Source: Physcomitrium patens (lineage: Eukaryota > Streptophyta > Bryopsida > Funariales > Funariaceae). Taken from it: DNA of 64,000 nt. Positions 11,326 through 60,780 of the stretch are shown piece by piece. Position numbers and translations under genes: made by a program. Within the stretch, counting starts at the first letter, position 1, and every line of letters starts with the position of its first letter. The stretch lies in NCBI RefSeq assembly GCF_000002425.4, contig NC_037265.1, forward strand, positions 13,367,123-13,431,122, written 5' to 3'. The notes beneath the pieces were generated by a model. It was not told where the DNA came from, searched no databases, and saw nothing but the letters and a program-made list of their open reading frames with translations.

Positions 11326-12398
11326 TGTTCATAGAAGAATTCTCCTCCTATATATACAAAATAGCATGATTAAGAGTCAAAAACAAAGTCCCAAACGTAA
11401 ACAAGCTTTTGTCCAAAATTAATTTATTAAGTATCATGGACATATACATTTATTCCAATAGTTATTTATATAATTAGGGAGGAGTATGTAAATATAGATT
11501 AATTTCTTAAAATCTTCTACGAAACCTTTTTAAAAGCTTTTTAGATGTATTTATAGAATAGAAACTTGGCCAACAAATTAATCATATATTGATAGCTTGT
11601 GGAACAAGTTAATTCACTATAGTAGCTTGTGGAACAAGTTAACTCCATATAGTAGCTTGTGTAACAAGTTAATTATGTGCCATATACATAGATAACTTGC
11701 CTTGCAAGTTAATATATGAAGCTAACAAAGTCAACACGTTTTAGAGTCCTAAGGACATTGCCACATAGCTCTTAATTAAGAGTATATATGGAGGCAAGAG
11801 TGAAGCATTCTTCACTCTTGTCAATGCATTCCTAGTCCTTAGTCTTATTCCAAGACTTTCTAGTCTTCTTATCTTTGGCAATAGCCATTCTAATTCAATA
11901 ATATATCATTTTTGAGTGACTTTCTAGTTCTTTTCAGTGACACAAGAGTGCATTGAGGATTTTCTTTCTTTGAGATTCATGTCCTTGACAATTTGACAAG
12001 AGTTCTAACATACTATTTCTATCTTATTTTAGAAGTGAGTGGATTATTCTACTTCTATTGTTGTATTTTGAAGGTTGTAGACTATCTACCTTTAAATAAA
12101 AAATCTTCTTTTTTAACACTGATTTTTTCTTTAAAGAAAATGAATTACTCTTTTTTGTGGAAATTTTTATTAGAGGTTATGGATTATCCTCCTCTAATTT
12201 AATTTTTTGGATTTGTTTGAGTTGTTTATGGAAGGAAAGATTATGGATGCTATTTATAGTAAAAGTGAGAATAGATTTGTAACTATTGCAAATCTTCAAG
12301 AATTTGTCAATATTTTTAGGGTAGAAATTTCACCCATTACCAATCTCAATGATGGGAGCACTACTTCTATATATATGGAAGAAGTCCAGAGTCTACAT

Positions 12399-14346: not shown

Positions 14347-17300
14347 TGTAATAGATATATACATTTAAGTGAGCAATTACCTATATAAATAGATAGAAGT
14401 AAATAAAAGTAGTTAAAAGTAAGTTAAATCTATAATATCTTCTATAAAAGCTTCTTAAAAGCTTTAAAGATGCTAATTTGACTTTATAGGTGTCTATAAT
14501 TGATATTTTAGGTTAAAAAAGTAGTCAACAAGTTGGCCATGTACCACACATATTGTTAGCTTGAAGACCAAGATAACTATTTGGTCCACACATAGAAAAA
14601 CTTCTTTTGTAAGTCAAAGCATGAATCCTAGAAAGTCAATACATATTGGAGGTCCTTTAGAACATCACCATGTAGCCTCTAGTTATATAGTATATATAGA
14701 GATAAGAGTGAAGCCCTCTTCACTCTTGTCAATTCTTTTCTTGCTTCTAGTCTAGTTTCAAGAGTCTTAAGTTTTTTTGTCTTTTGACAATAAGCCATTC
14801 TAGTTTCTTTTTAATATACGTACTTTCTTATTTCTATTTTGTTACTCTTTCTTTGATATGGATTTCATTCATTTATGCATCATCTTTTAGTTCATATCTT
14901 TGACTGATTGATAAGAGTCTACTTATAATATCAGAGCTTTGTTTTGTCTTGATTAAGAGTAGATTTCCTCTTTCTCATGATAAGACATAAGCATATTAGA
15001 AGTTGCAGATTACCCTCTTCTAAACTGATATTGTGCTTAGTATTTTCTTTCTCTTCAAGCCCTTTCTTCTACTTCTCTTGAGTTGTATTAGATATTTTTT
15101 TGAGTATTATTATGGCATAGCTTATTGAAATAAAGAGTGCAATAGCACAAATTCAAAAGCAATTGAGGGAATTGATGCTTGCGATGCATCAACTTAGCTT
15201 ACGATAATAAGGATCAACAAGAATGGCAGGAAGTGAGGATATTGAGATGATTAGAGATACTTCAACATCTACACCAAATCATGTCCCTCCACCCATGATG
15301 GAATATCCTTCAAGTATTAGAGAACCAAGAATTGCTTTATCTTAGAAGTTTGATGGTACAAGATCCAAATTTTGAGGATTTATCAATAAAGTACAACTTT
15401 TGATTGAACTTCAACCTCAAAGCTATCTAATTTTAAGATCTTAAGTTAGATTCATTGGTATACTTTTTTTAGGTTTAGTACTATTGTTGTTTTTATCTTT
15501 TCTTAAACGATGAGATCCAATATTAGATAATCTAGAGACATTTTTGACAAAATTCTAGTCCATGTATGGAGAATATGATGTAATTCGTGTTTCAACCAAT
15601 AAAATTTGTATTTTGCAACAAGGCAATCAATTAATAATGTTATATGCTTCATAGTTTCGACAACTTACAACTAATATCAAGTGAGATGATGCTGCACTTA
15701 TTAGCCAATTTTTCTATAGATTATAATATGAACTTATCTAATCTTCAAACATTGAGTCAAGTAATTAATTTTGCTGTGAAATGTGAAAATTAACTTTTTG
15801 AATTTCAATTTGAGAGTTGCATAAATGGGCCTCAACATTACTACAATTCGATGGCAACACCAACATCTCTTCAATTCATACATGTAAAAATAGAAGATAT
15901 ATAAATTAATACAATACGTTTTAAATCTCTTATTGAGCAAGAAAAGACTCATTGCCATTAATAAGGATTATGCTTATATTATGAAGAATCTAAATACATT
16001 GCTCAAAATTGTCCAAAGAAGTGACAAAATTACAAATTGAGGAGCATATCTATCAAAGAAGACAATATATCAAAAAACAAATTTGTCTAGCTATAATAGG
16101 GATCGTGCGGCTGAAATCTTGTATAATTTTTAATGAAGGTCCTATCTTCTCTTCAGAATCCTCTCCTTGTTTTATAATATATGTACGTTTAGGACCTAAT
16201 AATTATAAAGCCTCTGCCTTGATAGATTCAAGAGCCTTAGCTTGTTTCTTAGACGTAGAATTTATTAAAAGTTATAAAATATCATTAGTACAAAAAACCA
16301 AATCTATTCATATAGAAGTCATAGATAGTCATCTATTGTCTTTTGGAGATATTATTCATGAAACACTTCCTATAGATGTAGCAATAAATGATTAAAGTAG
16401 TTACGTAATCTTTAATATAATTTGATCTCCTTCTAATCCAATCATTTTAGGTTTATCATGATTAGAAAAATATAATCCTTGTATAGATTGGATTTCTCTT
16501 ATCCTTGACTTTTCTAAAAGTATAATTAAGAGTAAAATTAAGCTAATAGAAAGTCATAAGTCTAATTCAATTAAACCTATATTTGTAGGTATAAGAGCTT
16601 TCTTGCATGTTGCAAAAGAAGGATCACCTTGTGTCATTTACGCCATACTTGTTTTTAATGATACAAAGACTTCAAGTGGCATTCTCAACTAACATCAAGA
16701 ATTATGTATTCATTATCGAGGATTCATCAAAATCACCATCAAGAATAGGTACCCTCTACGTTTGATATCCGGACTTCTTAATTGATTGAATCAAGCTAAG
16801 ATCTACACAAAAATAGATCTATGAGGAGCATACAATTTAGTACGTATCAAAGAAAGAGATAAATGATATATTGCATTTTTATAGATGATATCCATCAAAA
16901 TCAAGATGAAATCTTCCATGTAAAAGAAACAAGATCTAGGCAAGATAACATTCTACTTTCAATCTTTATTTGTAGCTTTTTTGTATTTGTAACCCTAAAG
17001 AGATGGAAAGTCAACAATTAGCTGATTCGGTTGAAGAACCTTTATTTGGTGACTTGCCGGACAAGACATTGTGATTGTGACAACCTTCAAGATAATGCAA
17101 TCAAGATGAAGATCCTCAAGAACGACATTTTTTTCTTCAAATAGATAATGAGATTCAACGCATTTGATATCACAACCTTAGAAGAAACTCTCGATGTTTG
17201 GTAATTTTATTAGAGGTAGGAATTCTTTCTGATGGTATTTCAAATATTTTATTTGAAGGAAGTTATGAAGGCCTTAACAATTATCAAATAACAAGGAGGT

Positions 17301-18025: not shown

Positions 18026-19652
18026 AAACTAATGTAAATTGATACAATATGTTTTAAACCTCTCATGGAGCAAAAAAAGACTTAGTTCTGCCAAGAAGGT
18101 TTGTGTTTATATTATAGAGAAGCTAAGCACACTGCTCAACATTATCCAATGAAGTAAATGTATCAAAAAATATACTAAACTTATATGCATCTACTTTACT
18201 AAGAATACAATTACAAAATAAAGAGCACAATTACCGAAGAAGATAATGTATCTAAAATAAATTTTTTCAATTACAATAGGAGTCGTGTGGCTAGAATCAT
18301 ATGCAATACTTAGTAAAGATCTTATTCTCTCATCAAATCCCTCACCTTATATTATAATAGATGTGTGTTTAGGACCTAAAAATTACAAAATCTTTGTCTT
18401 ATTAGATTCAAGAGACTCAGCTTATTTTATAGACAAAGATTTTGTCAAAAATCAAAAAATATCTTTAGTCAAGAAAACTAAATCCATACATGTATAAGTC
18501 ATAGATGGTCATTTATTGTCTTTTGAAAATATTATCTTTGAGATTGTTCCTTTAGATGTAACAATTAAAGATCATAACAATGTAGTAATATTTAATGTAA
18601 TAAGATCTCCCTCTAATCTAATTATTTTAGGATTATCATAACAAGAAAAATATAATCTTCAAATAGATTGGATTTCTCATAACTTTAATTTTTTTTGATA
18701 GTATAATCAAAGATCTTGTTAGTAAAGTAGAAGTACATAAGTTTAGTATTTCCAAACCTTTGCTAATAGGTACAAGAACTTTTATGCATACTGCAAAAGA
18801 AAGACCATCTTTTGTTATATATGCTATGTCCATTTTTTATGGTGGAAAAACATCAAGCCATATTTCTAGCTAATATCAAGAATTTTAAGATGTTTTTGAA
18901 AAGAAGAATGTAGATATTCTTCCAGAGCATTGACCATATGATTGTTCAATTGATTTGCAAAAAAGAGCTCAACCACCATTGAGATCAATCTATAGCTTAT
19001 CGCAAAATGAGTTGGCAACATTAAAAGAATATATTAATGAGAACTTAGCAAAGAATTTCATATGCCATTTTAAATTTCTAGCCAAGGCTCCTATCTTATT
19101 TGTGAAGGAGAAAGATGCATCTATGTAAATGTGTGTAGATTATCGTGGACTCAATAAGATGACCATCAAAAATAAGTATCCTTTGCTTTTGATTTCAAGA
19201 ATTCTTGACCAACTTAATCGAGTAAAGATCTATATCAAAATAGATCTATAAAGAGCATACAACTTAGTTCGTATCAAAGAAGGAGATGAATAGAAGACTA
19301 CTTTTCGAACTAAGTATGGATATTTTGAATATAATGTCATGCCTTTTGGACTCACAAATATATTGGCTATTTTTTAAGATCTTATGAATGATATTTTTTA
19401 TGAGTTTCTTGATGATTTTGTCGTTTGCTGTTTAGACAAAATTCTAATCTACTCTAAGAAAACAAAAGAATATGAATTTCATGTTTGTCTTAAACTATAG
19501 AAACTTAGAGATGTAGAATTATATGTGAAGTTGAAAAAGTGTATATTCTATACTACTCAAGTTGACTTTTTAGGATACATCATTTTCAATGAAGGCCTTA
19601 TGATAGATCCCAAGAAGGTGTTAGGGACATATTCCTTAGAACTTTTTAGAGA

Positions 19653-19872
19653 GAAGTTTCTAGAACCTTCTAGAAAACAAGCCTCTGGAACCTTCTAGAA
19701 GAGAAGCCTCTGGAACCTTTTAGAGAGAAGTTTCTAGAAGCTTCTAGAAAGGAATCCCCTGGAACTTTCTAGAAGCTTCCTAGTTAATAGAAGTAGCTCG
19801 AGAAGTTTCTAGAACCTTCTAGAAAGGAAGCCTCTGGAACCTTCTAGAAGCTTCCTAGTTAATAGAAGTAGC
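19653..19872 (+). promoter_or_regulatory. Array of perfect heat-shock elements in the B 5' LTR
   Basis: The LTR upstream of its TATA box is packed with alternating GAA and TTC triplets at exact 5-bp steps, the binding pattern of heat-shock transcription factors. At 19653-19675 five contiguous perfect units occur (GAA-gt-TTC-ta-GAA-cc-TTC-ta-GAA). Similar runs of three to five units follow through about 19870, for example GAAgcTTCtaGAA and GAAccTTCtaGAAgcTTC. Three perfect contiguous units already form a standard HSE. The TATA box (TATATATAG) is at 19896-19904, directly downstream. This strongly suggests heat-inducible LTR transcription; no expression evidence is available. Confidence 0.85.
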
Positions 19873-19907
19873 TCGAGAAGCTTCCTAAGTAGGAGTATAT
19901 ATAGGGA

Positions 19908-19938
19908 TCGAGGCTGAAGAGTTCTTCAGTCTCGACAA
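19908..19938 (+). promoter_or_regulatory. LTR hairpin and predicted self-primer, element B
   Basis: Arms TCGAGGCTGAAG (19908-19919) and CTTCAGTCTCGA (19924-19935) pair with one G-U around a 4-nt loop, just after the TATA box at 19896. The predicted transcription start, about 32 nt after the TATA box starts, falls near 19928. The first 11 nt from there (AGTCTCGACAA, 19928-19938) are exactly complementary to TTGTCGAGACT at 20066-20076, two bases beyond the LTR end. Confidence 0.7.
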
Positions 19939-20065
19939 CACATCTCTTGGAGTTCTAGCTCACCTTTCTGGTGTTGTTCTTGTACTCATCTGTTTAATCT
20001 AGTTCTGCAACTTCTTCTTGAACTTCTTGTTAGATTTCAAGTCTGTATTTTGTGTCCGTGATAGT

Positions 20066-23000: not shown

Positions 23001-24961
23001 GATAAGAAGCTCCATTCAGTTGCATTCTATTCTCGGAAGTTCTCTGCTGCTGAAATCAATTATGACATCCACGATAAGGAACTTCTTGCTATAGTGGATT
23101 CTTTCGAAGAATGGCGTCGCTTTCTTGAAGGAGCTGCACATCCGGTAACCGTATATACGGATCACAAGAATTTGGAGTATTTCATGACGGCTCGAGTTTT
23201 AAATCGGCGTCAAGCTTGGTGGAATATGTCGCTATCTAGATTCGATTTTGTTATCACTTATCGATCTGGAAGGCAGCAAGGACTATCTGATGCTTTATCA
23301 AGGAGATCGTATCTTGCACCAAAGGCTGGAGAAGCAGCGTTTGATCAACAATGTACAACGTTATTGAAGCCAGAGAGATTTCAACTTTGTGCTACTATTG
23401 TATCATTTGATGCTGACTTCCTAAACCAGGTACGTGCTATGACCATTAAAGATTCAGTAGCCATTGATATCAAGCAACATACCAATGACGACAAGTTCAA
23501 GGTGGAGGGAGATCTTTTATACTTTGAAGAGCGATTGTACATTCCAAAAGGACCTGCACGACTCCGAGTTCTTCAATCTCGCCATGATTTTCTAGCTGCG
23601 GGACATTTTGGATTCAACAAGATCTTGGAGCTTATTTTCCGAGATTTTTGGTGGCCCCAAATGTGGAAGGATGTGAAAGATTTTGTCCTCTCTTGTGACA
23701 TCTGTTCAAAATCTAAGAATCTTCGGCATCGCCCTTATGGACTTCTAAATCCATTACCAATTCCACGTCCACCATGGTCTTCAATTTCTATAGACTTCAT
23801 CATGGACTTGCCATCATCAAACTCATTTGACAGCATCTTTGTCGTGGTAGATCGGCTTACAAAGATGGCACACTTTGTTCCTTGTAAGAAGACATCGTCC
23901 AGTGAAGTCACAGCAAGACTCTTTCTCGATAATGTGTATCGATATCATGGACTACCAGATGATATCATATCAGATCGAGGTACCTAATTCGTATCAAAGT
24001 TTTGGAGATCTCTCTTTGGGATATTGAAAGTGGATATCAAGCTTTCTTCAGCTTTCCATCCTCAAACTGATGGCCAAACGGAACGGGTGAACCAAGTCTT
24101 GCATCAGTACTTACGATGCAGCATCAACTATCAGCAAGACGATTGGACTGCATATCTATCGCTAGCCGAGTTTACATATAACAACACCCTCCATGCGTCG
24201 ACTCAACAAACACCATTCTTTTCCAACTATGGATATCATCCGAAGCTTGATTTATTGAGTCCGTCAACAAATAACAATCCAGCAGCTGAAAGATTTGCGA
24301 AGCAACTATCAGAGCTTCAAACTATGTTGAAGCTTCAATTACAATCCGCTCAAAAATCCTATAAGACGTCTACAGATAGATTTCGAAATCCAGCACCTAC
24401 TTTCAAAGTTGGAGACAAAGCCTGGCTTCTTCGACGAAATATCAAGACCAAGTGACCATGTGATAAGTTGGACTATCGAAGATTGGGACCATTTATCATC
24501 CAGAAGTAAATTAATCCAGTGGCATACTGGCTGGAGTTACCGGCTTCTATGAAGGTACATCCAGTCTTTCATGTTTCTCTATTGGAACCTGATCGAGAGT
24601 CATCTTTTCCTGGAAGAGTGCAATGTCCGCCACGTAGTATTGAAATCGAGAACCACGAAGAATACGAGGTTGAAAAGGTATTGGATTCACGGTGAAGGTG
24701 GAGAAAGTTAGAATATCTTGTTCATTGGTGCGGCTATGACATTAATGAGCGAACGTGGGAGCCAGCTGAAAATCTTGCGAATGCGCCACAAAAAGTACAG
24801 GAGTTTCATCAACGACATCCCGATAAACCTAAATCAATTCGACGATAGCTTCTTTCTGAAGCTTGTTCTCCCAACAATATAAGAAAAGGGGAGAGCACCA
24901 ACAAAATTCATAGTTGATGTAGTTATTTTCTCCAAGATAGATCGTAGTTTGGTCTTTTGAT

Positions 24962-25315
24962 ATGGATAGCCAAGAGATAGATACTATGCCAGTCAGAGTA
25001 TCGCAACCGAGTAGCTCACGAAGGGGACCCCGAGATGAAGAACTACATGTACCACGACGACGACGGAGGATACCGAGTAACCGATCACTGGTGATCGTAT
25101 TTGAGATCGAGCCTGCTTACGATGGTCAACCAGAAGGCGTGTTTGCAAGACAATTTCACAATGAGGACATGGAAGTTCATGCTTGGTCAGAAGTCAAAGG
25201 CGTGGGCCACTACCGTTGGCTTCAAGGGTCGATGAACCACTTACCTCGTGAACAACAGTTTGAATTCATAGCAGAAGTTATGGGACAGATCTTCATTTTC
25301 TTGCGTTGGTACTGA
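24962..25315 (+). CDS. Extra 3' ORF of element B (GHYRWL protein)
   Basis: This open frame of 117 codons lies between the chromodomain and the polypurine tract, where most Ty3/gypsy elements have nothing. The N-terminal third is basic and Ser/Arg-rich (RRGPRDEE, PRRRRRIPSNR). The C-terminal part has SLVIVFEIEPAYDGQPEGVF, then GVGHYRWLQG, NHLPREQQFEF and IFIFLRWY. The same order of motifs occurs in A4 (53121-53543), A2, A3 and the fragment at 63668-63930. No membrane segment, signal peptide or known domain is visible, so it is not an envelope. The function is unknown; a basic tail plus a compact folded core could suggest a nucleic-acid-associated or host-interaction role, which is only inference. 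Confidence 0.7.
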   Translation: MDSQEIDTMPVRVSQPSSSRRGPRDEELHVPRRRRRIPSNRSLVIVFEIEPAYDGQPEGVFARQFHNEDMEVHAWSEVKGVGHYRWLQGSMNHLPREQQFEFIAEVMGQIFIFLRWY

Positions 25316-25381
25316 TCAACAACATTGCTTCTCAGAGACCTCGAAGCTAAAGGAGGGGGTGATGTTAGGAACATATTCCTT

Positions 25382-25656
25382 AGAACTTTCTAGAGAGAAG
25401 TTTCTAGAACCTTCTAGAGAACAAGCCTCTGGAACCTTCTAGAAGAGAAGCCTGTGGAACCTTTTAGAGAGAAGTTTCTAGAAGCTTCTAGAAAGGAAGT
25501 CTTTGGAACCTTCTAAAAGAAAAGTTCTAGAAGCTTCTAGAAAGGAATCCCCTGGAACTTTCTAGAAGCTTCCTAGTTAATAGAAGTAGCTCGAGAAGTT
25601 TCTAGAACCTTCTAGAAAGGAAGCCTCTGGAACCTTCTAGAAGCTTCCTAGTTAAT
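25382..25656 (+). promoter_or_regulatory. Array of perfect heat-shock elements in the B 3' LTR
   Basis: This is the same GAA/TTC lattice as in the 5' LTR, expanded by one extra tandem unit. Runs include GAAgtTTCtaGAAgcTTCtaGAA and GAAccTTCtaGAAgcTTC; at least six separate perfect three-unit HSEs can be counted. The TATA box follows at about 25689. Because the 3' LTR could read outward, flanking DNA might also be driven by heat. Confidence 0.85.
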
Positions 25657-26603
25657 AGAAGTAGCTCGAAAAGCTTCCTTAGTAGGAGTATATATAGGGA
25701 TCGAGGCTGAAGAGTTCTTCAGTCTCGACAATACATCTCTTGGAGTTCTAGCTCACCTTTCTGGTGTTGTTCTTGTACTCATCTGTTTAATCTAGTCCTG
25801 CCACTTCTTCTTGAACTTCTTGTTAGATTTCAAGTCTGTATTTTGTGTCTGTGACAGAAGGTCTAAGCTATTATAAATTGAAAGATTCCAAAGACAATAT
25901 GAAATGTGTAATTTTTTTGGACTTTGCTAATTACTATCAAATCTTCATCAAGAACTTTTTTCAAATTGCAGCTCCACTTAAACGTTTGACTTTTAAAGAA
26001 AAACTTGAGTGGAATAAAAAAACAGAAGCAACATTTGATGTTTAAAAGAAAGAATTTATTTTTGCACAAATCTTGTATTATGTTGGCTTTTCTAAGATAT
26101 TTTTTTTTTATAGAAACAGACATGTCAAAATTTGCTATGGGTGTCATGTTCTCATAAATGAAAACATATAATAAACTCTACCTAGTAGCTTTCCATTCCA
26201 AGAAATTTTCAGCAACGAAGATTAATTATGAGATTCATGACAAAGAACTACTTACAATCATAGATTCATTTTAAAAATGGTGTCATTATTTAGAAGATAC
26301 CTCAAGTCCAATCACTGTATGTATGGATCATAAGAACCTCAAATATTTTATGTCAACACGTATTGTCAAAGACAAGAACTTGATAAAAATAAATAAACAA
26401 GTAAAAAAATTTTCAAAGAAAGATGAAGAAATAAAAATAACTAAATATGTATATTAAGAAAGAAACTAGAATGGCTATTGCCAAAAGACAATAAAATTAG
26501 AGACCCTTGAAACTAGACTAGAAGCAAGAAAAGAGTTGACAAGAGTGAAGAAGGCTTCATTCTTGCCTCTATATATACTATCTACCTAGGAGCTATGTGG
26601 CAG

Positions 26604-44340: not shown

Positions 44341-45482
44341 TATCATATTGTAATTGATTATAGTATGTAAAAATTAATTAGAACATATAATATGTTCATA
44401 AGTCTTGGTGTATGTTAGAATGATTAATAGATTAATTTAAAGAGAATAGATATAAAAAAAATTATTTTGAATTTTATCTATTTTGATTATAGCATTTAAA
44501 AAAATTATAGGATCCAAATGTTTAGTATGAAGTCTTGAGAGGAGATTAGAGCCTAAAGAAGAAAATCTTAACTAATAGAAGGCTTATTGGGAGGGATAAA
44601 AACAAGACATGGTTGGATGATGGCAAAGAATAGGGATCTTCATTCCTATTGATCAAAAGCCATGTCCAATGGGCTTCAAGGAAACTGCCTAAGGCCTTAT
44701 TAGATATTAGGATTTCTCTTTTGAAATCATTTGAGATTTGGAAGCTAAAATCAGCAAGTTTAGGGTTTTGGGTACGGATTGGATGCATTTTTGTGTCATT
44801 TGGAGTTTTAATGAAGGAATAATTGGTGCTCAAAGGTAAGGTATCAATTTCATATCTATTGTCACTCTTTGGGGCATAACATACGTTTACAAAGAGCAAT
44901 GGCAAATTGAAGACTATGGTTGGAGAGAGAACTTTTTTTACTACACTTTTTATATAATTTTTGATTAATTTGGAGTTTGAATGAAGAAGTTATAGAAGGT
45001 TGCAATCAACGCATCCAAATCAAAAGTAGTTAATAAGTGATTTTGTTCATAGTAATGGTTAGAGCTATATCTTGAGTTTTTGGAAAAATTTTGGACTTAA
45101 ACCTCTTGGAAAAGATATTATTATGTAAAGAAGCTATATATACAAATTTTGTAGCATTTGAATGCTTAGTTTGTGAAATATGAAGAAAATTACATGCAAG
45201 TATATAAAAATTAGGATTTGAAGCTACTGTTAGGATTTCTGTGATATCTTAAGATCCACGAAAAATTTGAAATTGAAATTTTTTATAATAGTTGTTAGAA
45301 GTATATCAATACTTCATGTAAAATTTGAATTTATTTGAACAATCCGATTGGAAGATATGAGTTTTTGAAGTTTGGAAATAATACCCCACAAGAATATACA
45401 AGGATTTAGAGTTTTTTTAATCATATTTTGGATGTTTTGGAAACTTAAGACTTATATATTTAATTTAGTTACTCCTAAAAGT

Positions 45483-45671: not shown

Positions 45672-48110
45672 AATGATACCATTCAAATACACTCAAATTT
45701 ACACAAAGTATTGATGTACTTCTTAAAACTACTACAACAAATTTCAACTGCAAATTCATTGCAAATCTCAAGATATCACCAAAATCTTGACAGTAGCTTC
45801 AAATCCTTGTTTTTATACACTCATGTGTAATTTTCTTCATATCTCACAAATCAAGGACTTAAATGCCACAAAATTTATAGATATAGTTTTTTAATACAAT
45901 AACATACCTTATTTAAAATATTTGAGCGAAAAATTCATGTGAAAACTCAAGATATGGCTCCGACCATTACTATGAACAAAATCACTCACTTACTGCTTTT
46001 GATTTGGATGCACTGAATCCAGCTCTCTATAACTTCTTGATTCAAACTCCAAATTCATCAAATAGTATATGAAAAGTGTAGGTAAGAAAGTCCTCTCTCC
46101 AACTCCAATTGCCAATTCTTTGTTGCTCTTTATAAGCATATGTTATGCCTTGAAGAGTGATAGTAGATATGAAATTAATACCTTAACTTTGAGTTCCAAT
46201 AACTCCTTCATAAAAACTCTAAATCATACAAAATTTTCACCCAATCCCTATCCAAAAATCTAAATTTTTTGACCTTAGCTTCCAAAGGTCAAATAAACTT
46301 GAAAGAAAAACCCTAATTCCTAATAAGTCCTTGAGCAACCTCCTAGAAGCCCATTAGGTATGACATTCAACCAATAGGGATGAAAAATTTCACTCTTTAC
46401 CTTCATCCAATCACACCTTCCTTTCATCTTTCCCAATAACTTCGTAATAGTTTAGACTTTCATCTTTAGACTCCAATCTCCTATTAAGGCTTTATACTTA
46501 ATATTTAGATCCTATAATGTTTTTAAATACTATAATCAAAATAGATAAAATTCAAAATAAAGTTTCTTATATCCACTCTCTTTAAATTAATCTATTAATC
46601 ATTCTAAAAGATACCAAAAATTATAAACATATTATATATTCTAACTAATTTTTATATATTATAAGCAATTATAGTACGACATCACCTTACACAGGTATGA
46701 TTTGTGAAAGAACAATATATCCTAAATAAGATACTATTAGTCTAAGAATTAATCTACTAAGCCAAAAAAAACCAAGAAAATATAGTATACTACTAATTGA
46801 CTTTAAAAAAGTATACGATAAGATCAATTTAACCTTCATTTAGCAAATAATGAAAAAACTAAGATTCTCAAAGGAATGGATGAAATAGATAGCTATATCA
46901 TACAACAACATCTAATTAGCCATCCTAATAAATGGATAAAGAAATAAAAAATTCACACTTGAAATGCCGATCAAACAAAGATATCCTCTAGTACCTTACT
47001 TATACATGTTCATATCACATGTGTTATCGCATATGATCAATGACTCTACCTATGCAGTACATGGCCTTTGCCTCTCCAACAATAGCACGACCTACAACCA
47101 ATGCTTCACAGATGATACAACCCTCTACCTTAAGGAAACTCTCAACAACCTAGAACGTACATTTGAGGTACTTAAGCTATTCTATGTGGTCTTGGGATCA
47201 ATGCTCAATTAAAACAAAAGAAAGGTGCTGTGGATTAGCAACGACCTAAGGCCATAAAACTAAGAAAAAAATAAGGGCTTCATATGGCTTGCTCAAGGCA
47301 TACATATCAAATATCTAGGCTTCATCTTTGGAGATGAAGTAATCTAATATAACAAAGATAAAGCAGTTATTTATCAAATCCCAAAAAAACTAGTACAATG
47401 GTCAAATAAAAGGCTTTCTTTCTCAACTTGGATGCTCATATCAAACTAGGTCATATTTGAGAGCATATAATATCTAGCATCATGTAATGACATCAAACAA
47501 AAGATCTTGATAAGGATAAGAACCATCATCTGGACTTTTATATGGACATTAGATTTGAATAGGAAGATGAGAGTCAGAGTAGAATGAGACATATCAATTA
47601 ATCTAATGGCCAAAAGAAAGATCGAGGCATTTGATCCACTTGGCCAAACGAGAGTCTTTTGGCCAAGATGATGTTAAGAGTCCTAGTCTAGAAAAAAGAG
47701 CCCTGAAAATCCCTTATCCTATATAAGATCCAAAATACACAACTCCATAACAACAAAGACTAGAGCAAACATGCAAGCTGTCACGGACATACATATAATT
47801 ACCTATATGAATAGATAAAAGTATGTAAAAGTAGATAAAAGTAGGTTAATTGTGTAATATCTTCTAGAGAAGCTTCTTAGAAGCTTCATAGACGCTGCTT
47901 TGACTTTATAGGAGTCTATAGTTGACTTTTAGGCTAGAAACTTGGTCAACAAGTTAGCCATGTGCCACACATGTTGGAAGCTTAAAGAACAAGCTAACTA
48001 CGTGGTCCATCCATAGAAAACTTGCCTTGCAAGCAAAGGCATGTGGCCTAGAAAGTCAACATATATTGGAGGTCTTATAGAACATCGCCATGTGGCTTCT
48101 AGTTAGATAG

Positions 48111-48152
48111 TATATATAGAGGCAAGAGTGAAGCCCTCTTCACTCTTGTCAA
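48111..48152 (+). promoter_or_regulatory. TATA box, LTR hairpin and predicted self-primer, A4
   Basis: TATATATAG at 48111-48119 is followed by arms GGCAAGAGTGAAG (48121-48133) and CTTCACTCTTGTC (48138-48150) around a CCCT loop. A start about 31 nt after the beginning of the TATA box falls near 48142. The 11 nt from there (ACTCTTGTCAA, 48142-48152) are exactly complementary to TTGACAAGAGT at 48319-48329. The hairpin changes in step in A2 (GATAAGAGTGAAG with CTTCACTCTTATC), which supports pairing. Confidence 0.75.
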
Positions 48153-48318
48153 CTCCTTTCTTGCTTCTAGTCTAGTTTCAAGGGTCTCTAGTTTTCTTGT
48201 ATTTCAGCAATAGCCATTCCAATTTCTTTCTTAATATACATATTTCTATTTTGTCCTATTTCTTTGAGAAAAGTCTCACTTACTCTTTAGCTTTCATCGA
48301 GTTCTTGTCCTTGACAGA

Positions 48319-48329
48319 TTGACAAGAGT
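48319..48329 (+). promoter_or_regulatory. Candidate self-primer binding site, A4
   Basis: TTGACAAGAGT starts 2 nt after the 5' LTR end (48316) and is the exact reverse complement of the predicted RNA 5' end at 48142-48152. A1 (11993-12003) and A2 (14908-14918) have the equivalent site at the same 2-nt distance. A weak tRNA-Met-like string, TATGAGAGC, follows at 48340-48348. Confidence 0.7.
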
Positions 48330-48528
48330 ACACTTACAATATGAGAGCTTTGTCTTTTCTTGATTAAGAGTGGATTACCCCTTTTTCTTGATAAGACATA
48401 AGCGCATTAGAAGTTGTGGATTACCCTCTTTTAAACTGATATTGTTCTTAGTATTTTCTTTGTTATCAATTCCTCTCTTCTATTTGTTTTGAGCGTTATT
48501 AGACATCTTTTCTTTTCTAAGTGCTACT

Positions 48529-49536
48529 ATGGCAGAGCTTGTTGAAATGAAGAGTGCAATGGCACAGATGCAAGAATAATTGAGGGAGTTACTGCTTGCG
48601 ATGCATCAACTCAATTTACCACCACAAGGAGCAACAAGAATGGTAGGAAGTGAAGATATAGAGATGATTGGGGCTCCTTCAACATCTGCACCAAACCATG
48701 TCCCTTCTCCCAGAATGGAACACCCTTCGAGTGTTAGAGAACCGAGAGTGGCCTTGCCCGAGAAGTTTGATGGTACCAGATCCAAGTTTCGAGGATTCAT
48801 CAATCAGGTCCAATTAGTGATTGAACTTCAACCCCAGAGCTATCCAACTCCAGGGTCACAAGTTAGATTCATTGGTACACTTCTTTCAGGTTCAGCATTG
48901 TCATGGTTTTCATCTTTTCTTGAACGACGAGATCCAATATTGGATAATCTGGAGGCTTTTTTGGCGGAGTTTCGATCCATGTTTGGAGAACATGATGCAA
49001 TTCATGTTGCAACCAACAAGATCCGTATTTAGCGACAAGGCAATCGATCAATAACATTATATGCTTCACAATTTCGACAACTTGCAACTGATATCAAGTG
49101 GGATGATGCCGCACTTGTGAGTCAATTTCTCTACGGATTACAATATGAGGTAAAGAAATTGATGCTTAATTTACCTGATCCTCAAACATTGAGTCAAGCA
49201 ATTGACTTTGCTGTGAAGTGCGACAATCGACTTTTTGAATTTCGATCCGAGAGTCGTATAAGTAGGCCTCAACGTTACTACAATTCAATGGCAACACCGA
49301 CGTCTCCTCAACACATACCTTCAGAAGTAGAGGATATGCAAATTGATGCGGTACGTTTCAAACCTCTTACTGAGCAAGAAAAGTCTCGTCGTCGACAAGA
49401 AGGATTGTGCTTATATTGTGGAGAACCTAAGCACACTGCTCAACATTGTCCAAAGAAGCGACGTAACTACAAAATGAGGAGTACGGCTGTCAAAGAAGAC
49501 AGTATGTCGGAAAACGAGTACGTCCAGCTACAATAG
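48529..49536 (+). CDS. gag region of A4
   Basis: This is the structural polyprotein region of the chromovirus, which forms the virus-like particle and binds genomic RNA. It opens with a short helical leader (MAELVEMKSAMAQMQ), then a capsid-like retrotransposon-gag domain (KFDGTRSKFRGFINQV, SALSWFSSFLE, SQFLYGLQYEVKKLML). A single zinc knuckle, CLYCGEPKHTAQHC, lies at about 49408-49450, followed by a basic segment. The region is part of a broken element and is given as one approximate range. Confidence 0.85.
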
Positions 49537-49551
49537 GGACCGTGCGGCTGG
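49524..49551 (+). promoter_or_regulatory. Conserved gag-pol junction hairpin (A4)
   Basis: CCAGCT (49524-49529) can pair with GGCTGG (49546-49551) around a 16-nt loop containing the end of gag and the motif GGGACCGTGC. In B the same place has CCAGCC (21357-21362) and GGCTGG (21379-21384) with the same loop length. CGTGCGGCT or a near match is also kept in A1, A2, A3 and A5. It may act in the gag-to-pol switch that Ty3/gypsy elements use. Confidence 0.5.
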
Positions 49552-52500
49552 AATCTTGTACAACTTCTAATGAAGGTCTTATCCTCTCCTCAGAACCATC
49601 TCCTTGTTTTATAATAGATGTGCGTTTAGGACCTAATAATTACAAAGCCTCTTCGTTGATAGATTCAGGAGCCTCAGCTTGTTTTTTAGATGAAGAATTT
49701 GCTAGATGTCATAGAATATCATTAATACAAAAAACTAAACCTGTACACGTAGAAGTCATAGATGGTCGTCCGTTATCTTCTGGAGATGTAACGCACGAAA
49801 CACTTCCTGTAGATGTAGTAATAAATGGTCATAGTAGTTGCGTAATTTTTAATATAATTAGATCTCCCTCTAATCCAGTAATTTTAGGCTTATCATGGTT
49901 AGAAAAGTATAATCCTCGAATAGATTGGATTTCTCGTAAACTTGATTTTCCTCAGAGCATTAGTAACAGTTCTATTAATCAAGTAAAAAACCATGAGTCT
50001 AGTATAGTAAAACCCGCACTTATAGGTGCAAAAGCATTTATACACGCAGCAAAAGAAGGATCAACTTTTGCTATTTATACTGCACCTATTTCTGAAAGTG
50101 TAAAGACTTCAAGTGGCATTCCAAGTCAATATCAGGATTATCAAGACGTTTTTGAGAAAAAGAATGCAGATATTCTTCCTGAGCATCGCCCATACGATTG
50201 TTCAATCGATCTCAAGGAACTTAGCCACCATTTGGACCAATTTACAGTTTATCGCAAGATGAGTTGGCTGAACTCAAGACATATATTGACGAGAATTTAG
50301 CGAAGAATTTCATACGCCATTCAAAATCTCCAGCAGGAGCTCCAATTTTATTCGTAAAGAAAAAAGATGGATCTTTACGAATGTGTGTTGACTATCGAGG
50401 ACTCAACAAGATCACAATCAAGAACAGGTATCCATTACCTTTGATATCAGGACTCCTTGACCAGTTAAATCAAGCTAAGATCTATACAAAAATAGATCTA
50501 ACAGGAGTATATAATCTAGTACGGATCAAAGAAGGAGATGAATGGAAGACTGTGTTTCGAACCAGGTACGGACACTTTGAATACAATGTCATGCCTTTTG
50601 GACTCACGAATGCACCAGCTGCTTTTCAACATCTCATGAATGATGTATTTCGTGAATTCTTAGACAATTTTGTCGTCTGCTACCTAGACGATATTTTGAT
50701 TTATTCTAAGAATGTTGAAGAACATGAAATACATGTTCGTCAAGTATTACAAAAACTTAGAGATGCAGGATTGTACGCCAAGATAGAAAAGTGTGTATTT
50801 CACACTACTCAAGTTGACTTTTTAGGATACATCATTTCAAATGATGGTCTTATGATGGATTCTAAGAAAGTCCAAACAATCATGGATTGGAAGATTCCAA
50901 AGACTGTAAGAGATGTCCAATGTTTCTTGGGATTTGCCAATTACTATCGGATCTTCATCAAAGACTTCTCACGAGTTGCAGCTCCACTTACACGCTTGAC
51001 TAGTAAAGATAAATTCCAATGGAATCAAGAAGCGGAAGCAGCATTTGAAGCCTTAAAGACATCGTTTGTCTCTGCACCAGTCTTATATCGTGTTGATTTT
51101 TCCAAGGTATTTTTTATGGAAACAGACGCATCGGATTTTGCCTTGGGTGCAGTTTTATCACAAATGGGAACCGATGACAAACTTCATCCTATAGCTTTTC
51201 ATTCAAGAAAATTCTCAGCAGCCGAGATCAATTATGAGATCCACGATAAAGAACTTCTTGCAATCGTGGATTCTTTTCAAGAATGGCGTCATTATCTAGA
51301 AGGTGCTTCTAGTCCAGTCACTGTGTATACAGATCACAAGAACCTCGAGTATTTCATGTCACCACGCGTGTTGAATCGTCGTCAAGCTCGTTGGAGTATG
51401 TCTTTGTCAAGATTTGACTTCATTATCACTTATCGGCCAGGAAAACAACAAGGTTTGTCCGATGCCCTATCTAGACGTTCTTATTTTGCACCAAAAGAAG
51501 GAGATACAGCTTTTGAGCAACAAAGAATGGTCCTCTTGAAACCGGAGCAATTTCATCTCCGAGCAGTGAAATCAACACTGACTGTTGATTCAACTTTTCT
51601 CAAGCAAATCCAGTCCAGTATGTCCTCAGACCCTCTTGTTCATGATATCGAGAATAATTCTTCCAAGTCTCATGATTCTTCTAAGTTCGAGTTCAAGAAT
51701 AATCTATTATATTTTGAAGGACGCCTATATGTTCCAGAAGGAAAAGCACGTTTGCGTGTTCTTCAAGCACGTCATGACTTTCCAGCAGCAGGTCACTTTG
51801 GATATAATAAGACTCTGGAACTCATATCAAGAGATTTTTGGTGGCCACAAATGTGGAAGTCAGTCAAAGACTTTGTACAATCATGTGATATTTGTTCAAG
51901 ATCAAAAATTCCTCGACATCGACCTTACGGACTTCTTCAGCCATTACCTATACCAGAACAACCATGGTCTTCTGTTTCTATGGATTTCATCACAGATCTT
52001 CCAAACTCAAGATCTTATAATTCTATATTTGTGATAGTAGATCGTTTCACCAAGATGGCACATTTTATGCCATGTACAAAATCTATCACAGGTGAAGAAA
52101 CAGCTAAGATTTTCATTGATAATATCTATCGCTATCATGGATTACCTAAAGATATCATATTGGATAGGGGAACTTAATTTGTGTCGAGATTCTGGAGGAC
52201 TCTTTTCAAGATTTTAAAAGTGGACATAAAGCTACCTTCAGCTTTCCATCCTCAAACTGATGGACAAACAGAGCGCGTAAACCAAGTCTTGGAACAGTAT
52301 TTAAGGTGTACCATCAACTACCAACAAGATGATTGGACAATCCTTCTGCCATTGGCAGAGTTTGCTTATAATAATACAGTACATTCCTCCACGCAACAAA
52401 CACCTTTCTTTGCCAATTATGGCTATCATCCACGACTTGATACTTTTGATTTTTCAGAAGTTGATAATCCTGCAGCAGAAGATATGGCAAATCGGTTGTC

Positions 52501-53026
52501 AGAGTTACATGCAATAATGAAGGCGCAGTTGAAGAAAGCTCAAGAACGACAAAAGATAAATGCAGATGTATATCGTAAAGAGCAACCACAACTCAACGTG
52601 GGTGATAAGGTATGGCTACTTCGTCGCAATATCAAGACCACTCGACCTTGTGACAAATTGGACTATCGTAGGCTTGGCCTCTTTTCTGTTTCTGAACAGA
52701 TCAATCCAGTTGCATATCGGTTACATCTACCGGAGTCAATGAAGATCCATCCTGTATTCCACGTGTCTCTTCTTGAACCATATAAGATAGTGGATATACA
52801 AGGAAGAAGACAAATGCCACTGCCTCCTATAGAAGTAGATAATAATGAAGAATTTGAGGTGGAAGAGATATTAGACTCAAGGCGGCGCCGAAATAAGCTG
52901 GAATATCTTGTTCATTGGCGCGGATATGATATTAGTGAGCGCACATGGGAGCCATCCAGGAATCTAGCAAATGCATCAGCTAAAGTCAAAGTTTTTCATC
53001 AACGACATCCATCAAAACCAAGATGA
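49533..53026 (+). CDS. pol region of A4 (PR-RT-RNase H-IN-chromodomain)
   Basis: The domain order is that of a chromovirus. The aspartic protease (DSGASACFLD) is near 49662. Reverse transcriptase has [26 protein letters not shown] and catalytic YLDD at 50681-50692. RNase H has FMETDASDFALGAVLS and YTDHKNLEYF. Integrase has an HHCC zinc finger (HFGYNKTLELI..., CDICSRSK) and the catalytic core. The C-terminal chromodomain (EYLVHWRGYDISERTWEP) lies at about 52850-52990. Chromodomains steer integration to marked chromatin, which fits the nested clustering seen here. The region belongs to an element with a few breaks, and an approximate range is given. Confidence 0.9.
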
Positions 53027-53543: not shown

Positions 53544-56236
53544 TCACCGCTCCTCGTGGAACTCGTCCATAGAAGGGGGGGTAATGTCACGGACATACAT
53601 ATAATTACCTATATGAATAGATAAAAGTATGTAAAAGTAAATAAAAGTAGGTTAATTATGTAATATCTTCTAGAGAAGCTTCTTAGAAGCTTCAAAGACG
53701 CTGCTTTGACTTTATAGGAGTCTATAGTTGACTTTTAGGCTAGAAACTTGGTCAACAAGTTAGCCATGTGCCACACATGTTGGAAGCTTAAAGAACAAGC
53801 TAACTACGTGGTCCATCCATAGAAAACTTGCCTTGCAAGCAAAGGCATGTGGCCTAGAAAGTCAACATATATTGGAGGTCTTATAGAACATCGCCATGTG
53901 GCTTCTAGTTAGATAGTATATATAGAGGCAAGAGTGAAGCCCTCTTCACTCTTGTCAACTCCTTTCTTGCTTCTAGTCTAGTTTCAAGGGTCTCTATTTT
54001 TCTTGTATTTCGGCAATAGCCATTCCAATTTCTTTCTTAATATACATATTTCTATTTTGTCCTATTTCTTTGAGAAAAGTCTCACTTACTCTTTAGCTTT
54101 CATCGAGTTCTTGTCCTTGACACAAGCTCGATATTCATGACCTCCAAAATGTGGCCACAAGGCTCAAGCCTTTGGTAAGCAATATGGATTGCATGGACGA
54201 TGATCAAAAAGAAACTTATCAAAGTACTTCCCAACATATACACCAAAAAGATGTGTTAGTCTCTGTTTTTGAATTTTAAAATTACCACAAATGATAACTT
54301 CAATCTGAAAATAAAGGCCAACTTAAGGTTTTATACATGATCCATTAACGGAGTCAACATGGTGGAAGACATTTAGAACAACCATTGATACAACTAGCAC
54401 ATCAATCAAGCATTGAGATATAACATAAGATTTGAGAAGATCAAAATGTTCATATAAATTATATATGAAGTAGTAAAATGGAACCTCACACAACCTAACT
54501 CCTCGATTGAAGGAGAATAGGTAATGTCAGGCCCCGAGACATCAGTCTATCACATAACAAAAAGAAAACCTAAAAGGTGGAAGGACTCTCAATATACAAG
54601 AGTAAGCAAAATAAACCAATTTGATAGGATTGATAACTACATGATAATACTTGTAGATGCAATAGAGGAAGTAAAAATTTTCATAAGAAATCAATTGGAG
54701 AAGGTAATGGAATTCAATCTAATTGACTCCCTGGATTGGACTTGCATAATATAGATGCAGTGAGATGGCTTGATAAAAGGACTCAAAATTAACCCAAAAG
54801 AATAGACATGGTGCAAATAAGGCTTAATGTTGACTAAAAAATTGTTCAACTAAACCACAAAGAAAAGATATAAAATCATCCTAATGTAGCAATATAGGTA
54901 GACGGAATTCAATAGAACCATGGCAAGCCACAGCTACTCTCTAGTCCAAAAAATATAATATTTTATTATAATATGGCATCTATAGCTCTCCTACAAGATC
55001 CCTGCCATGGTATGGCTCTTAATTATAGAGGGCCTTTTTATTAAAGAATAGAGGCCCAAAATATAGTAAGACAACTAATACAACCTCTATGCCAGCTAAA
55101 TTCCAAAGATAATAGACACACATTTTTTTCTTGTCCACATATTGCACTAGCTTGAAAAAAATATGCAACTATTAAGAGATTCTCGGATCTGATCACCTCC
55201 AACATCACATGGGAGGCCACACTCCATGGCACCTTTTCAATCTTACTAACCAACAACATAAATGCATAGGACAACTCTACATTTTGGGACATGGATAGCT
55301 TGTATTCCATTACCAAGAAACACTATGAGACATCTTGTGATATGCCATCATTTGATACATATGATGCCAAAATTACAAACATGACCTCAAAAAAAGGCAA
55401 TTCTACCTTAAGATGACATTATATTGAGTATGGTAGAGTACAGTCTAAATAGCCATGGGCGCATAGACAGAGCTACAAAAATATAAGCATTGCCACTCAT
55501 CCGAGTGCCACAGCAAAATAGAATCCAAATTTACAATAATATAGGTGCAGGGAAATATATTTAGTAAGACAATACACTCTTCCAAATAAAAATTGATCAC
55601 CCATTTTAACTTCGTTCCTAGAGACCTAACGAATCCACTACAAACCATCTTGACATCCACTGCAAACTGGACACAATCACAATAAGAACCACGAAACAAA
55701 GCCTCACCTTAACAAAATATAAAACAAACTTGCACAGTCTATCAAATATTTGGAGGCCCAACCATGCTCTAACTCTTTATCACGAGCCAAAGACATGAGA
55801 GAAAAATTTGTATACATAATAACAAAGGATATCCTAGCACAAATTATAGGTGATATCAAATACTCAGAGAAAGATCAATCCTCATAAGACAAGCCAAACA
55901 AAAGTCCTAAGTACATGCCAATACATACAAATGATATATTGTAGTTAGCCGAAAGAGACTCAAACTTCCAAAAACAAGCAACTAGTTATCAAACATGAAT
56001 CAAAAAAATACCCAATATGAATTTAGATATCTAAATCTAATAAGATAGGACAACACCTTTTAGAAGCTCAGATACTCGGATCCAACAAAGTAAAAACCTA
56101 GACAATACTTGACTAATTGTGTAATAGGATATAAAGGCTTCAAACTAAGAATCCTTTACATGGCACACTTTGTATGCCAATGTGGATTTTTTTAATCTAT
56201 TATAAGATTTATTTACTTTCAATACAAGCCATTTTG

Positions 56237-58990: not shown

Positions 58991-59392
58991 CGAGTTTGCC
59001 TCAACATGTAATGCAAACAGAAAACAGAAAGTCATTCTGAGTCCATAATCTAGCTTATATGCTTTGTCACATAAAGATTGCTGTGCTGCGAAATATCTAG
59101 ATCGGTCTTTGTCGCCAGCGCCGGTGTCGGTAAAGCGCCGAATCTATATCGGACACTAGGATCCGATGCCGATCGCGCATATGAATCGGTTCGTACCATG
59201 AGATTCACGGCATCGTTATCCTCGGAACTTGGGGACCGTGAAGTATATCACTAGTACTGATTCCTGCAGCGAGTGCTGGTGTATCGATGCGCTCGCTAGG
59301 CATTTATGATCTGTGAAGATCAGAAGTAGTGCGATGCACCGCAGGAGGGCTGTACATAACCTTTGATTTCTGTGTTGGAAGTGATCGTTGCT

Positions 59393-59800
59393 CTAGGACT
59401 GCCACAGCAGCTCCTCAAAGACCGCTGCCTCGCATGCGATCCGCAAGCCGCCTTCAGATTCAAATCCGTATTCCTCCTCAGTTTTCTTAAGTAGGTCTCG
59501 GAAGACTTGCTTGTGTAGGAAGGTGGTATGGATGACAAAGCGTCGCATCTCTGGGCCGACGTAGACCGCGAAGCATCCCTGGGGAATGCCTGCTGGTGCA
59601 TCGTTGTTCCAGTCGTCTGAGTCGGAGCCGCTGCTTGAACGGCTCTCCCCCGACCGGTGACTCCAGGAGCGGGATGAAATTGAGAAGTTTCCTGACCACC
59701 AACGTTTCAGACTTCGGGTATTTGCCCACGGGCTGCCATACTCTGGCACTCCTCTCATAAACTTCTTCACCAGCTTTCCAATCCTCTTCCCCGAAATCAT
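59393..59800 (-). CDS. SAUR: SAUR-family small auxin-up RNA protein
   Basis: This is an intronless minus-strand gene of 135 codons. I chose the start at 59800 (MISGKRIGKLVKKFMRG), because this basic N-terminus is typical of SAURs; an in-frame upstream Met at 59902 would add 34 residues unlike the family. A Ser-rich linker (about residues 35-65) leads to the SAUR core: AGIPQGCFAVYVGPEMRRFV, HTTFLHKQVFRDLLKKTEEE, YGFESEGGLRIACEAAVFEE, LL. SAUR proteins inhibit PP2C.D phosphatases and so activate plasma-membrane H+-ATPase and cell expansion. Position -500 carries one TGTCTC auxin-response core on the minus strand (60300-60305), which could be chance. The 59040-59390 region is probably its 3' UTR and 59801-60750 its leader and promoter. 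Confidence 0.92.
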   Translation of the reverse strand: MISGKRIGKLVKKFMRGVPEYGSPWANTRSLKRWWSGNFSISSRSWSHRSGESRSSSGSDSDDWNNDAPAGIPQGCFAVYVGPEMRRFVIHTTFLHKQVFRDLLKKTEEEYGFESEGGLRIACEAAVFEELLWQS

Positions 59801-60780
59801 CGTGAGTTCCAGTAGCGGACCTAAGGACGTTGAGAAGATTATTTCCAAGAGGACAGAACCAAGAATTTTGTTAGTGGCGGTTGATTCAGGGTTGCCTTTC
59901 ACACGGCCTTGCCCTGCACGAAGTCAGTGATGCATATCTCTGGGTCGCCATCGATCGAGTTCTCCACTCAGAGGCACTGCTGAAGGGTCAATTCTGGACA
60001 GAATTGTGTCGCCCCTGTCATACACTACGAAGGATATACCAGACGACCACTTGGGTTAAGAAACGACAAAGAGGGGGAGCTTCACGTTCTGCTGCCTAAA
60101 CGCGAAGCAAGAGCATCGATCCACAGCAAGGGCCTGAGTTTTGGGAAGGATGCTGAAAGGGAGGAGGACCCAGTCGGAGGCAGCTAATTGTTTGCCATCT
60201 AGCGATTGCAGTCACTTCACCTTACCCCGCGTAGTGCTAAGAGATGTAGAATTTCAGAAACTCGACGAACCTAGGACGAATTGCAAGCATACCACCGCTG
60301 AGACACAGCACAAACACCATCAGTATGCAGAGCCAAAGAAGGTCGCTAGAGAAGCTGAAAGGGAGATGGCAAGGTGGGGAAACAGCCTCAGAGGTGAATA
60401 TTCAGACAGGGGCAACGCATTTATGTTCACAGTGCACAGCCTGAGCTCCACCTGGTACAACAAATAGGCAGATAACTAAGCACAAAAACAGTCGAAGTCC
60501 TGCCAGCCCTACACTGGACAATGCAGAATGCCGTTCTCGAGACTGCTTTTCTTTGACCAACACGTAAAACCCACACACTCGCACACAGAGAGACACACGT
60601 TATTTTAGAAATCACAATGGAGCAGCTTTTCTTCCTTTCAGCAGCCATAGCCTGGGCATGTCTACACAGAGTCCGATATTTCGTAGCGACATTTGCTGAG
60701 CCCCCATTGAAAACACTGCATGATTCTGGTGTCATGTCAGTTACTACAAAAAGTGGCGAGCACCATATAGCAAAATGAAA
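59801..60780 (-). other. Moderate-GC upstream region of the SAUR gene
   Basis: This island of ordinary composition between the SAUR start and AT-rich DNA probably holds its leader and promoter. Open frames on both strands are short, overlapping and unlike known proteins. The only recognisable motif is the TGTCTC core at 60300-60305 (minus strand). Confidence 0.45.

What the first reader, a model, noticed from the sequence alone, without database searches (positions are those of the whole stretch)
48111..48329. Tf1-like self-priming of reverse transcription in a plant chromovirus
In A4 the 11 nt at the predicted RNA 5' end (ACTCTTGTCAA, 48142-48152) are exactly complementary to TTGACAAGAGT (48319-48329), two bases past the 5' LTR. 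A1 has the same match (11814-11824 with 11993-12003) at the same 2-nt gap. In A2 the post-LTR site TTGATAAGAGT (14908-14918) matches the 3' LTR copy ACTCTTATCAA (17842-17852), a covarying pair. Yeast Tf1 is known to prime minus-strand DNA from an 11-nt duplex of its own RNA 5' end. Plant Ty3/gypsy elements are normally thought to use a host tRNA, so a self-priming plant chromovirus would be notable. That these families use it is inference.
Basis: partly seen in the sequence, partly recalled or inferred. Interest (0 to 1): 0.95.

Follow-up and report, generated by a model that had tools for sequence, protein, structure and literature searches.

The report
Self-priming moss retrotransposons with primer lock
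Mobile elements in a moss genome appear to start copying their RNA into DNA with a scrap of their own RNA instead of a host tRNA, a habit already predicted for this group, and they carry a hairpin that might hide the spare copy of that primer.

Summary
The window is from a moss (470-Mb assembly); the elements are Tf1/sushi-like chromoviruses, probably Tcn1 clade. In A4, A1 and a second family with different letters (B, 19619-25856), the 11 nt about 31-32 nt after the TATA box are exactly complementary to the 11 nt starting 2 nt past the 5' LTR. Of 80 copies sampled by a leader motif, 76 were measurable: 45 pair 11/11, none at slides of 1-4 nt, none has a tRNA-type TGG. Classes A and B differ at three primer positions and the PBS compensates all three. 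3614 exact class-A pairs occur genome-wide. Self-priming is the best explanation (0.9), but not new: Neumann et al. 2019 predicted it for moss and club-moss Tcn1 elements. The A2 'covariation' is weak; within-class changes may be decay.

In full-length RNA it can form only at the 3' end. I propose it locks the 3' R copy so that only the 5' copy primes. The structure is well supported as sequence; the function is inferred.

The parts
47779..48316 (+). A4 5' LTR (TG...CA), flanked by 5-bp duplication CAAGC at 47774-47778
   Evidence: 99% identical over 538 bp to 53585-54122; edges read
48111..48118 (+). A4 TATA box (TATATATA), 31 nt before the predicted RNA start
   Evidence: read; same spacing in sampled copies
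48121..48150 (+). A4 U3/R inverted repeat: U3 arm 48121-48133, loop 48134-48137, 3' arm 48138-48150 (CTTC + first 9 nt of R); 12 WC + 1 G.U pairs
   Evidence: conserved in the sample
48142..48152 (+). A4 predicted RNA 5' end / self-primer ACTCTTGTCAA
   Evidence: start site inferred from TATA spacing
48319..48329 (+). A4 primer-binding site TTGACAAGAGT, 2 nt past the LTR
53572..53581 (+). A4 polypurine tract, 3 nt before the 3' LTR
   Evidence: read
53585..54122 (+). A4 3' LTR, followed by duplication CAAGC 54123-54127; U3/R inverted repeat 53927-53956 with R copy from 53948
48580..53026 (+). A4 gag-pol remains in several frames: DUF4939/gag, protease, RT, RNase H, integrase, Tf2-1-like SH3, chromodomain
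11814..11824 (+). A1 self-primer; inverted repeat arms 11793-11805 and 11810-11822
11993..12003 (+). A1 primer-binding site
14722..14918 (+). A2 5' LTR self-primer 14722-14732 and PBS 14908-14918 (10 WC + 1 G.U)
19619..20063 (+). B 5' LTR, preceded by duplication GAAGG 19614-19618; inverted repeat arms 19907-19919 and 19924-19936
19928..19938 (+). B self-primer AGTCTCGACAA
20066..20076 (+). B primer-binding site TTGTCGAGACT, 2 nt past the LTR
25363..25856 (+). B 3' LTR, followed by duplication GAAGG 25857-25861

Best explanation
These are Ty3/gypsy chromoviruses of the Tf1/sushi (probably Tcn1-like) type in a moss. Their genomic RNA would start at the A about 31-32 nt after the TATA box. Its first 11 nt fold onto a site 2 nt past the 5' LTR; RNase H would cut after nt 11 and the new 3' end would prime minus-strand DNA, as reported for yeast Tf1. 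Shown: the sequences, their register, repetition, between-class compensation, and the absence of a tRNA-type site. Inferred: exact transcript start, cleavage and priming. Further inference: the U3/R inverted repeat folds at the 3' end of the RNA only, where it ties up 8-9 of the 11 primer nt of the 3' R copy, so that the 5' copy alone reaches the primer-binding site.
For: 11/11 complementarity in A4, A1 and B; 45 of 76 sampled copies perfect, 56 of 76 with G.U, 0 of 76 perfect when slid; class A and B primers differ at positions 2, 6, 8 with compensating PBS letters; 3614 exact class-A pairs against 0 reversed controls; PBS present after the 5' LTR in 10 of 10 and absent after the 3' LTR in 6 of 6 young copies read in query orientation; no TGG within 12 nt of the LTR, 0 of 76; RNAalifold picks the primer:PBS helix in both classes; chromodomain, gag and SH3_Tf2-1 matches. 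Lock: 72 of 77 copies pair at least 11 of 13, slides give at most 2 of 77; folding competition in 74 copies.
Against: No transcript ends or cDNA were seen. The window copy of B alone folds otherwise (primer:PBS probability 0.24-0.43). The full three-duplex 'pretzel' was not demonstrated. Within class A the two 11-mers largely look as if they drift separately in old copies. Novikova 2010 found neither priming type in Selaginella SM-Tcn1 (PMC2864245). For the lock: with the window's own A4 pieces the modelled effect is small; in double-changed copies the U3 arm mostly did not follow R7; the 13th pair is A.C in 23 of 35 class-B copies.
Confidence: 0.9

Rival explanations
1. A host tRNA (or half tRNA) primes, as in other plant chromoviruses, and the 11-mer match has another role. 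The leader carries TATCAGAGC about 20 nt past the PBS, which resembles the tRNA-iMet site (recalled) without its TGG.
For: TATCAGAGC lies within 50 nt of the PBS start in 61 of 76 sampled copies.
Against: It lies far from the LTR end and lacks the TGG that pairs with CCA; TGG within 12 nt after the LTR in 0 of 76. It does not explain why primer and PBS letters change together between classes. Half-tRNA matches were not searched for.
Confidence: 0.05
2. The U3/R inverted repeat is not a primer lock but a DNA-level promoter palindrome (bound by a dimeric protein), a source of small RNAs, or an aid to minus-strand transfer.
For: It lies between TATA box and predicted start in the LTRs. In 43 orientable double-changed copies the U3 arm mostly did not follow R7.
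Against: Pairing is kept between classes through changes on both sides at pairs 6, 10 and 12, though a palindrome-binding protein could select that too; 8-9 of its pairs are primer nucleotides; folding predicts that the 3' R competes for the PBS without it.
Confidence: 0.5
3. The matched 11-mers are only inherited family sequence, alike by descent within two families, with no priming role.
For: Copies are related; class A and class B amount to one contrast with three compensated pairs, so cell counts overstate independent events.
Against: Descent explains the repetition but not why two sites about 140-190 nt apart are complementary in both classes with different letters, at the fixed positions required by the Tf1 scheme.
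Confidence: 0.05

Closest known systems
Tcn1-clade chromoviruses of mosses and club-mosses (Neumann et al. 2019, PMC6317226; Novikova et al. 2010, PMC2864245)
   Same: Moss host, chromodomain, RT nearest by identity among named hits to a Tremellales (Cryptococcus order) protein, no tRNA PBS, complementarity between the 5' LTR and a site just past it.
   Different: Those papers report predicted self-priming or no PBS; the passages I saw mention no U3/R inverted repeat and no between-class compensation test.
Tf1/Tf2/Tj1/Tosmo and sushi elements (Tf1/sushi group)
   Same: 11-nt RNA 5' end complementary to the PBS (PMC7175516, passage).
   Different: Fungal or vertebrate hosts; the three-duplex 'pretzel' (PMC10085805, passages) was not demonstrated here; whether they have a U3/R inverted repeat is unknown to me.
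TAR lineage (Houba, Osr-1), Ty1/copia
   Same: Plant elements predicted to self-prime (PMC6317226, passages).
   Different: Ty1/copia superfamily; the window elements have Ty3/gypsy order (RT before integrase) and a chromodomain.

Membership tests
Tf1/sushi group of chromoviruses | RNA 5' end complementary to a PBS just past the 5' LTR | tested here: met
   the RNA 5' end itself is predicted, not mapped
Tf1/sushi group of chromoviruses | Chromodomain at the end of integrase | tested here: met
   PF00385 E 1.1e-15 in 52178-53023
Tf1/sushi group of chromoviruses | Three-duplex 'pretzel' in the 5' RNA | tested here: inconclusive
   central duplex and a small U5-end stem found; other duplexes not shown
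Tf1/sushi group of chromoviruses | -1 frameshift between gag and pol (non-fission-yeast members) | tested here: inconclusive
   overlapping ORFs 49033-49536 and 49467-50300 are in -1 relation, but A4 is damaged
Tcn1 clade | RT phylogeny with Tcn1 and moss/club-moss relatives | tested here: inconclusive
   22-row RT tree: moss rows with three unnamed database proteins 99/96; nearest named is Tremellales (68%); backbone unresolved, no named Tcn1 row
Tcn1 clade | Non-seed plant or fungal host | tested here: met
   moss: SAUR hits Ceratodon and Physcomitrium
tRNA-primed plant chromoviruses (Tekay, CRM, Reina, Galadriel) | PBS starting TGG, complementary to a tRNA 3' end, close to the LTR | tested here: not met
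   0 of 76 copies
Self-primed retrotransposon (demonstrated) | Cleavage after nt 11 and cDNA attached to the R-derived primer | not testable with these tools
   needs RNA and cDNA

The most novel reading that the evidence does not exclude
The U3/R inverted repeat is a primer lock. A self-priming element has a problem that tRNA-primed elements lack: its primer sequence occurs twice in the RNA, at the 5' end and again in the 3' R, and the 3' copy could occupy the PBS or be cut by RNase H. A stem that needs U3, and so can exist only at the 3' end, hides 8-9 of the 11 nt there and leaves the 5' copy free. Primer, PBS and U3 arm then form a three-way coupled set.
Probability: 0.35. Interest if true: 0.72.

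Novelty: new variant of a known kind. Interest (0 to 1): 0.52.

Why it matters
In the papers I saw, plant self-priming rests on sequence predictions. This moss carries thousands of class-A copies and a second class whose primer and PBS changed together, a natural test that supports the prediction and offers material for an experiment in a plant. The U3/R inverted repeat, if it is a lock, would answer how a self-primed RNA avoids using its second R copy, and gives a signature to look for in Tf1, sushi and Tcn1 LTRs.

Tried and rejected
Rejected: a full-tRNA PBS (no TGG); chance (slid controls; reversed-pattern controls 0). Set aside: A2's R/PBS pair as proof of covariation. Genome counts (gap 155-185): R7 G with PBS5 C 3614, exactly one changed 435+459 = 894, both changed 171. 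With an even split of the 894 the odds ratio is about 3.1. Sorting the listed rows by eye into A4-like and A1-like LTRs (19 and 31 of 50; 69 and 31 of 100; 48 and 2 of 50) gives about 2.4 and about 0.8, the latter resting on two rows; these ratios are hand arithmetic, not a call. An age control with an unpaired double change (asked) did not complete. Weak hint against pure decay: in double-changed copies the U3-arm C, in the same local context as the PBS C, is T in 4 of 43, against 3 of 33 in unchanged class-A copies.

Led nowhere: a scan of viral contigs for relatives (7 stretches, none confirmed by tblastn); Lin and Levin 1997 and the Tf1 review not held. Rows dropped: of 80 sampled copies, L075, L080 and L083 gave no R start by the rule and L041 no LTR end, leaving 77 and 76. 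L046 was sorted into class A by my one-letter rule although it is class B with a mislocated site (3 pairs); it stays in the 76 and, and was left out. L111 was left out on a suspicion that one search does not bear out (its site reads 10 of 11). thus used 74 of 76. Seven of 50 double-changed sites could not be oriented. Half-tRNA priming, gag CCHC motifs and Rfam were not examined.

Full report
What the window is. It lies in a 470,438,890-base assembly of 101 contigs (G000:C13). A SAUR gene at 59396-59923 (-) has Ceratodon purpureus (60% identity) and Physcomitrium patens (57%) as its best named hits, so the host is a moss. No call names the species.

Observation. All coordinates in the finding are right. 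A4 has LTRs 47779-48316 and 53585-54122, 99% identical over 538 bp, a 5-bp duplication CAAGC on both sides and a polypurine tract before the 3' LTR. The LTR ends in CA at 48316 and the PBS starts at 48319. Young copies confirm this edge: the six 3' LTR copies readable in query orientation (L013, L028-L030, L033, L034) go from CA straight into unrelated flank, while the ten 5' copies (L005, L006, L008, L009, L012, L016-L018, L020, L021) continue with GA and the PBS. A TATATATA box starts 31 nt before the primer.

A second family with other letters. The element at 19619-25856 (B; duplication GAAGG on both sides) has primer AGTCTCGACAA at 19928 and PBS TTGTCGAGACT at 20066, 11 of 11. It differs from class A at primer positions 2, 6 and 8, and the PBS compensates each.

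Sample chosen without the PBS. The leader motif GTGGATTACCC, about 40 nt past the PBS, occurs 3243+3296 times in the genome, against 16+16 for the reversed control. From the 100 places listed (contig C1, 0-4.5 Mb) I merged neighbours to 80 element starts and fetched 511 bases each. In 77 the R start was found by a rule that ignores the PBS (TATA box, pyrimidines, then A), and in 76 the LTR end was found by its own context. R:PBS pairing: class A 25 of 41 perfect WC (32 with G.U), class B 20 of 35 (24 with G.U); mean 10.38 WC; slides of 1-4 nt give means of 0.63-3.47 and never 11. TGG within 12 nt after the LTR: 0 of 76. The exact class-A pair at this spacing occurs 3614 times genome-wide, the reversed control 0, and at the shorter spacing another 16. 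Class B was not counted genome-wide.

Folding. The A4 RNA from 48142 forms the complete 11-bp primer:PBS helix as MFE, pair probabilities 0.53-0.83; A1 0.64-1.00; the window copy of B prefers another fold (0.24-0.43). RNAalifold on 40 class-A and 34 class-B rows chooses the primer:PBS helix as the long-range helix in both, plus a small stem at the U5 end. The 'pretzel' described for Tf1 relatives (PMC10085805, passages) was not demonstrated.

Genome counts: neither 3614, exactly one 894, both 171. Pooled, doubles are about three times what independence predicts, but sorting listed rows by eye gives about 2.4 in A4-like and about 0.8 in A1-like copies (the latter resting on 2 of 50 unchanged rows), and copies differ in age. 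I do not claim within-class covariation. Of the first 50 listed double-changed copies 43 could be oriented; the U3-arm base opposite R7 is C in 35, T in 4, A in 3, G in 1. If the doubles are templated changes, the PBS followed R while the U3 arm did not, as copying of the primer into the daughter's PBS would do; this is a lead, not a result.

The U3/R inverted repeat. Upstream of the start, U3 holds GACAAGAGTGAAG or GGCAAGAGTGAAG (class A) or GTCGAGGCTGAAG or, more often, ATCGAGGCTGAAG (class B), then 4 loop nt, then CTTC plus the first 9 nt of R. Mean pairing is 12.34 of 13 (WC+GU), 72 of 77 copies have at least 11, and slides of the 5' arm give at most 2 of 77. Between classes, pairs 6, 10 and 12 change on both sides and pair 7 becomes G.U in B; within B pair 2 is G-C instead of A-T in 2 copies. 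The 13th pair is A.C, not a pair, in 23 of 35 class-B copies (A.T, a change on the other side, in 1). Hairpin energies are -16.3 (A4), -18.9 (B) and -19.7 (A1) kcal/mol, against -14.4, -16.2 and -14.4 for the isolated primer:PBS duplexes. In a two-piece folding model of 74 copies (39 A, 35 B), with each copy's own 5' LTR U3/R standing in for its 3' LTR, barring the U3 arm from pairing raises 3'R:PBS occupancy from 0.0013 to 0.546 (A) and from 0.0005 to 0.309 (B) and lowers 5'R:PBS from 0.702 to 0.235 and from 0.368 to 0.161; barring another 13-nt U3 stretch leaves 3'R:PBS below 0.001 and 5'R:PBS at 0.541 and 0.387. With the arm free, 3'R exceeded 5'R in 0 of 39 A and 1 of 35 B copies; with it barred, in 28 of 39 and 19 of 35. 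With the window's own A4 pieces the effect is small (3'R 0.000 to 0.065; 5'R about 0.1 in both settings), with B larger (3'R 0.000 to 0.256; 5'R 0.695 to 0.287). The model ignores the kilobases between the ends and any protein.

Mechanism. Shown: sequence, register, abundance, between-class compensation, no tRNA site, a robust U3/R inverted repeat. Reported for Tf1 by others: the first 11 nt pair with the PBS and RNase H cuts between nt 11 and 12 (PMC7175516, passage; the two primary or review texts I asked for were not held). Inferred here: transcript start, cleavage, priming, and the lock. That TATA boxes lie about 30 nt before plant start sites is recalled.

Relation to known systems. Gag matches DUF4939 and Retrotrans_gag; pol has protease, RT, RNase H, integrase, Tf2-1-like SH3 and chromodomain matches. 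In an RT tree of 22 rows the two moss rows and three unnamed database proteins form one clade (99/96); the nearest named row by identity is a Tremellales protein (68%), while two Tanacetum chromoviruses sit together on a long branch; the backbone is unresolved. Neumann et al. [quoted passage not shown] Novikova et al. 2010 found neither mechanism in Selaginella SM-Tcn1 (PMC2864245, passages). So the mechanism is a known prediction; the strength of the evidence and the U3/R inverted repeat are what is added. I found no description of such a repeat with paper searches (listings) and in passages of PMC3601003, PMC4600332 and PMC10085805; subscription papers on Tf1 and sushi were not available, so it may be in print.

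Noticed in passing
leaders of sampled copies L035-L114; window about 20087-20100 and 48340-48350: TATCAGAGC, like the plant tRNA-iMet primer site (recalled) without its TGG, lies within 50 nt of the PBS start in 61 of 76 copies: relic, second contact or coincidence.
   Followed up: partly
window 48371-48430 and 20119-20290: The leader motif GTGGATTACCC is repeated in these leaders and occurs 6539 times in the genome against 32 reversed controls; its role is unknown.
   Followed up: no
window 18962-19618: Sequence just upstream of B resembles A4's RT region, so B seems to be inserted in another element; the downstream side was not checked.
   Followed up: no
window 48529-49032; loci L005-L021: A4's gag has two premature stops although its LTRs are 99% identical; of 8 young copies read, 4 have none before the end of that frame.
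   Followed up: partly
window 12399-13541 and 44341-45482: Two stretches 87-91% alike, the first lying downstream of A1's leader; possibly another repeat family.
   Followed up: no
window 7228-8722 and 59320-59923 (-): Host genes: a chitinase class I (GH19) fragment at 7463-7933 and a SAUR gene at 59396-59923.
   Followed up: no
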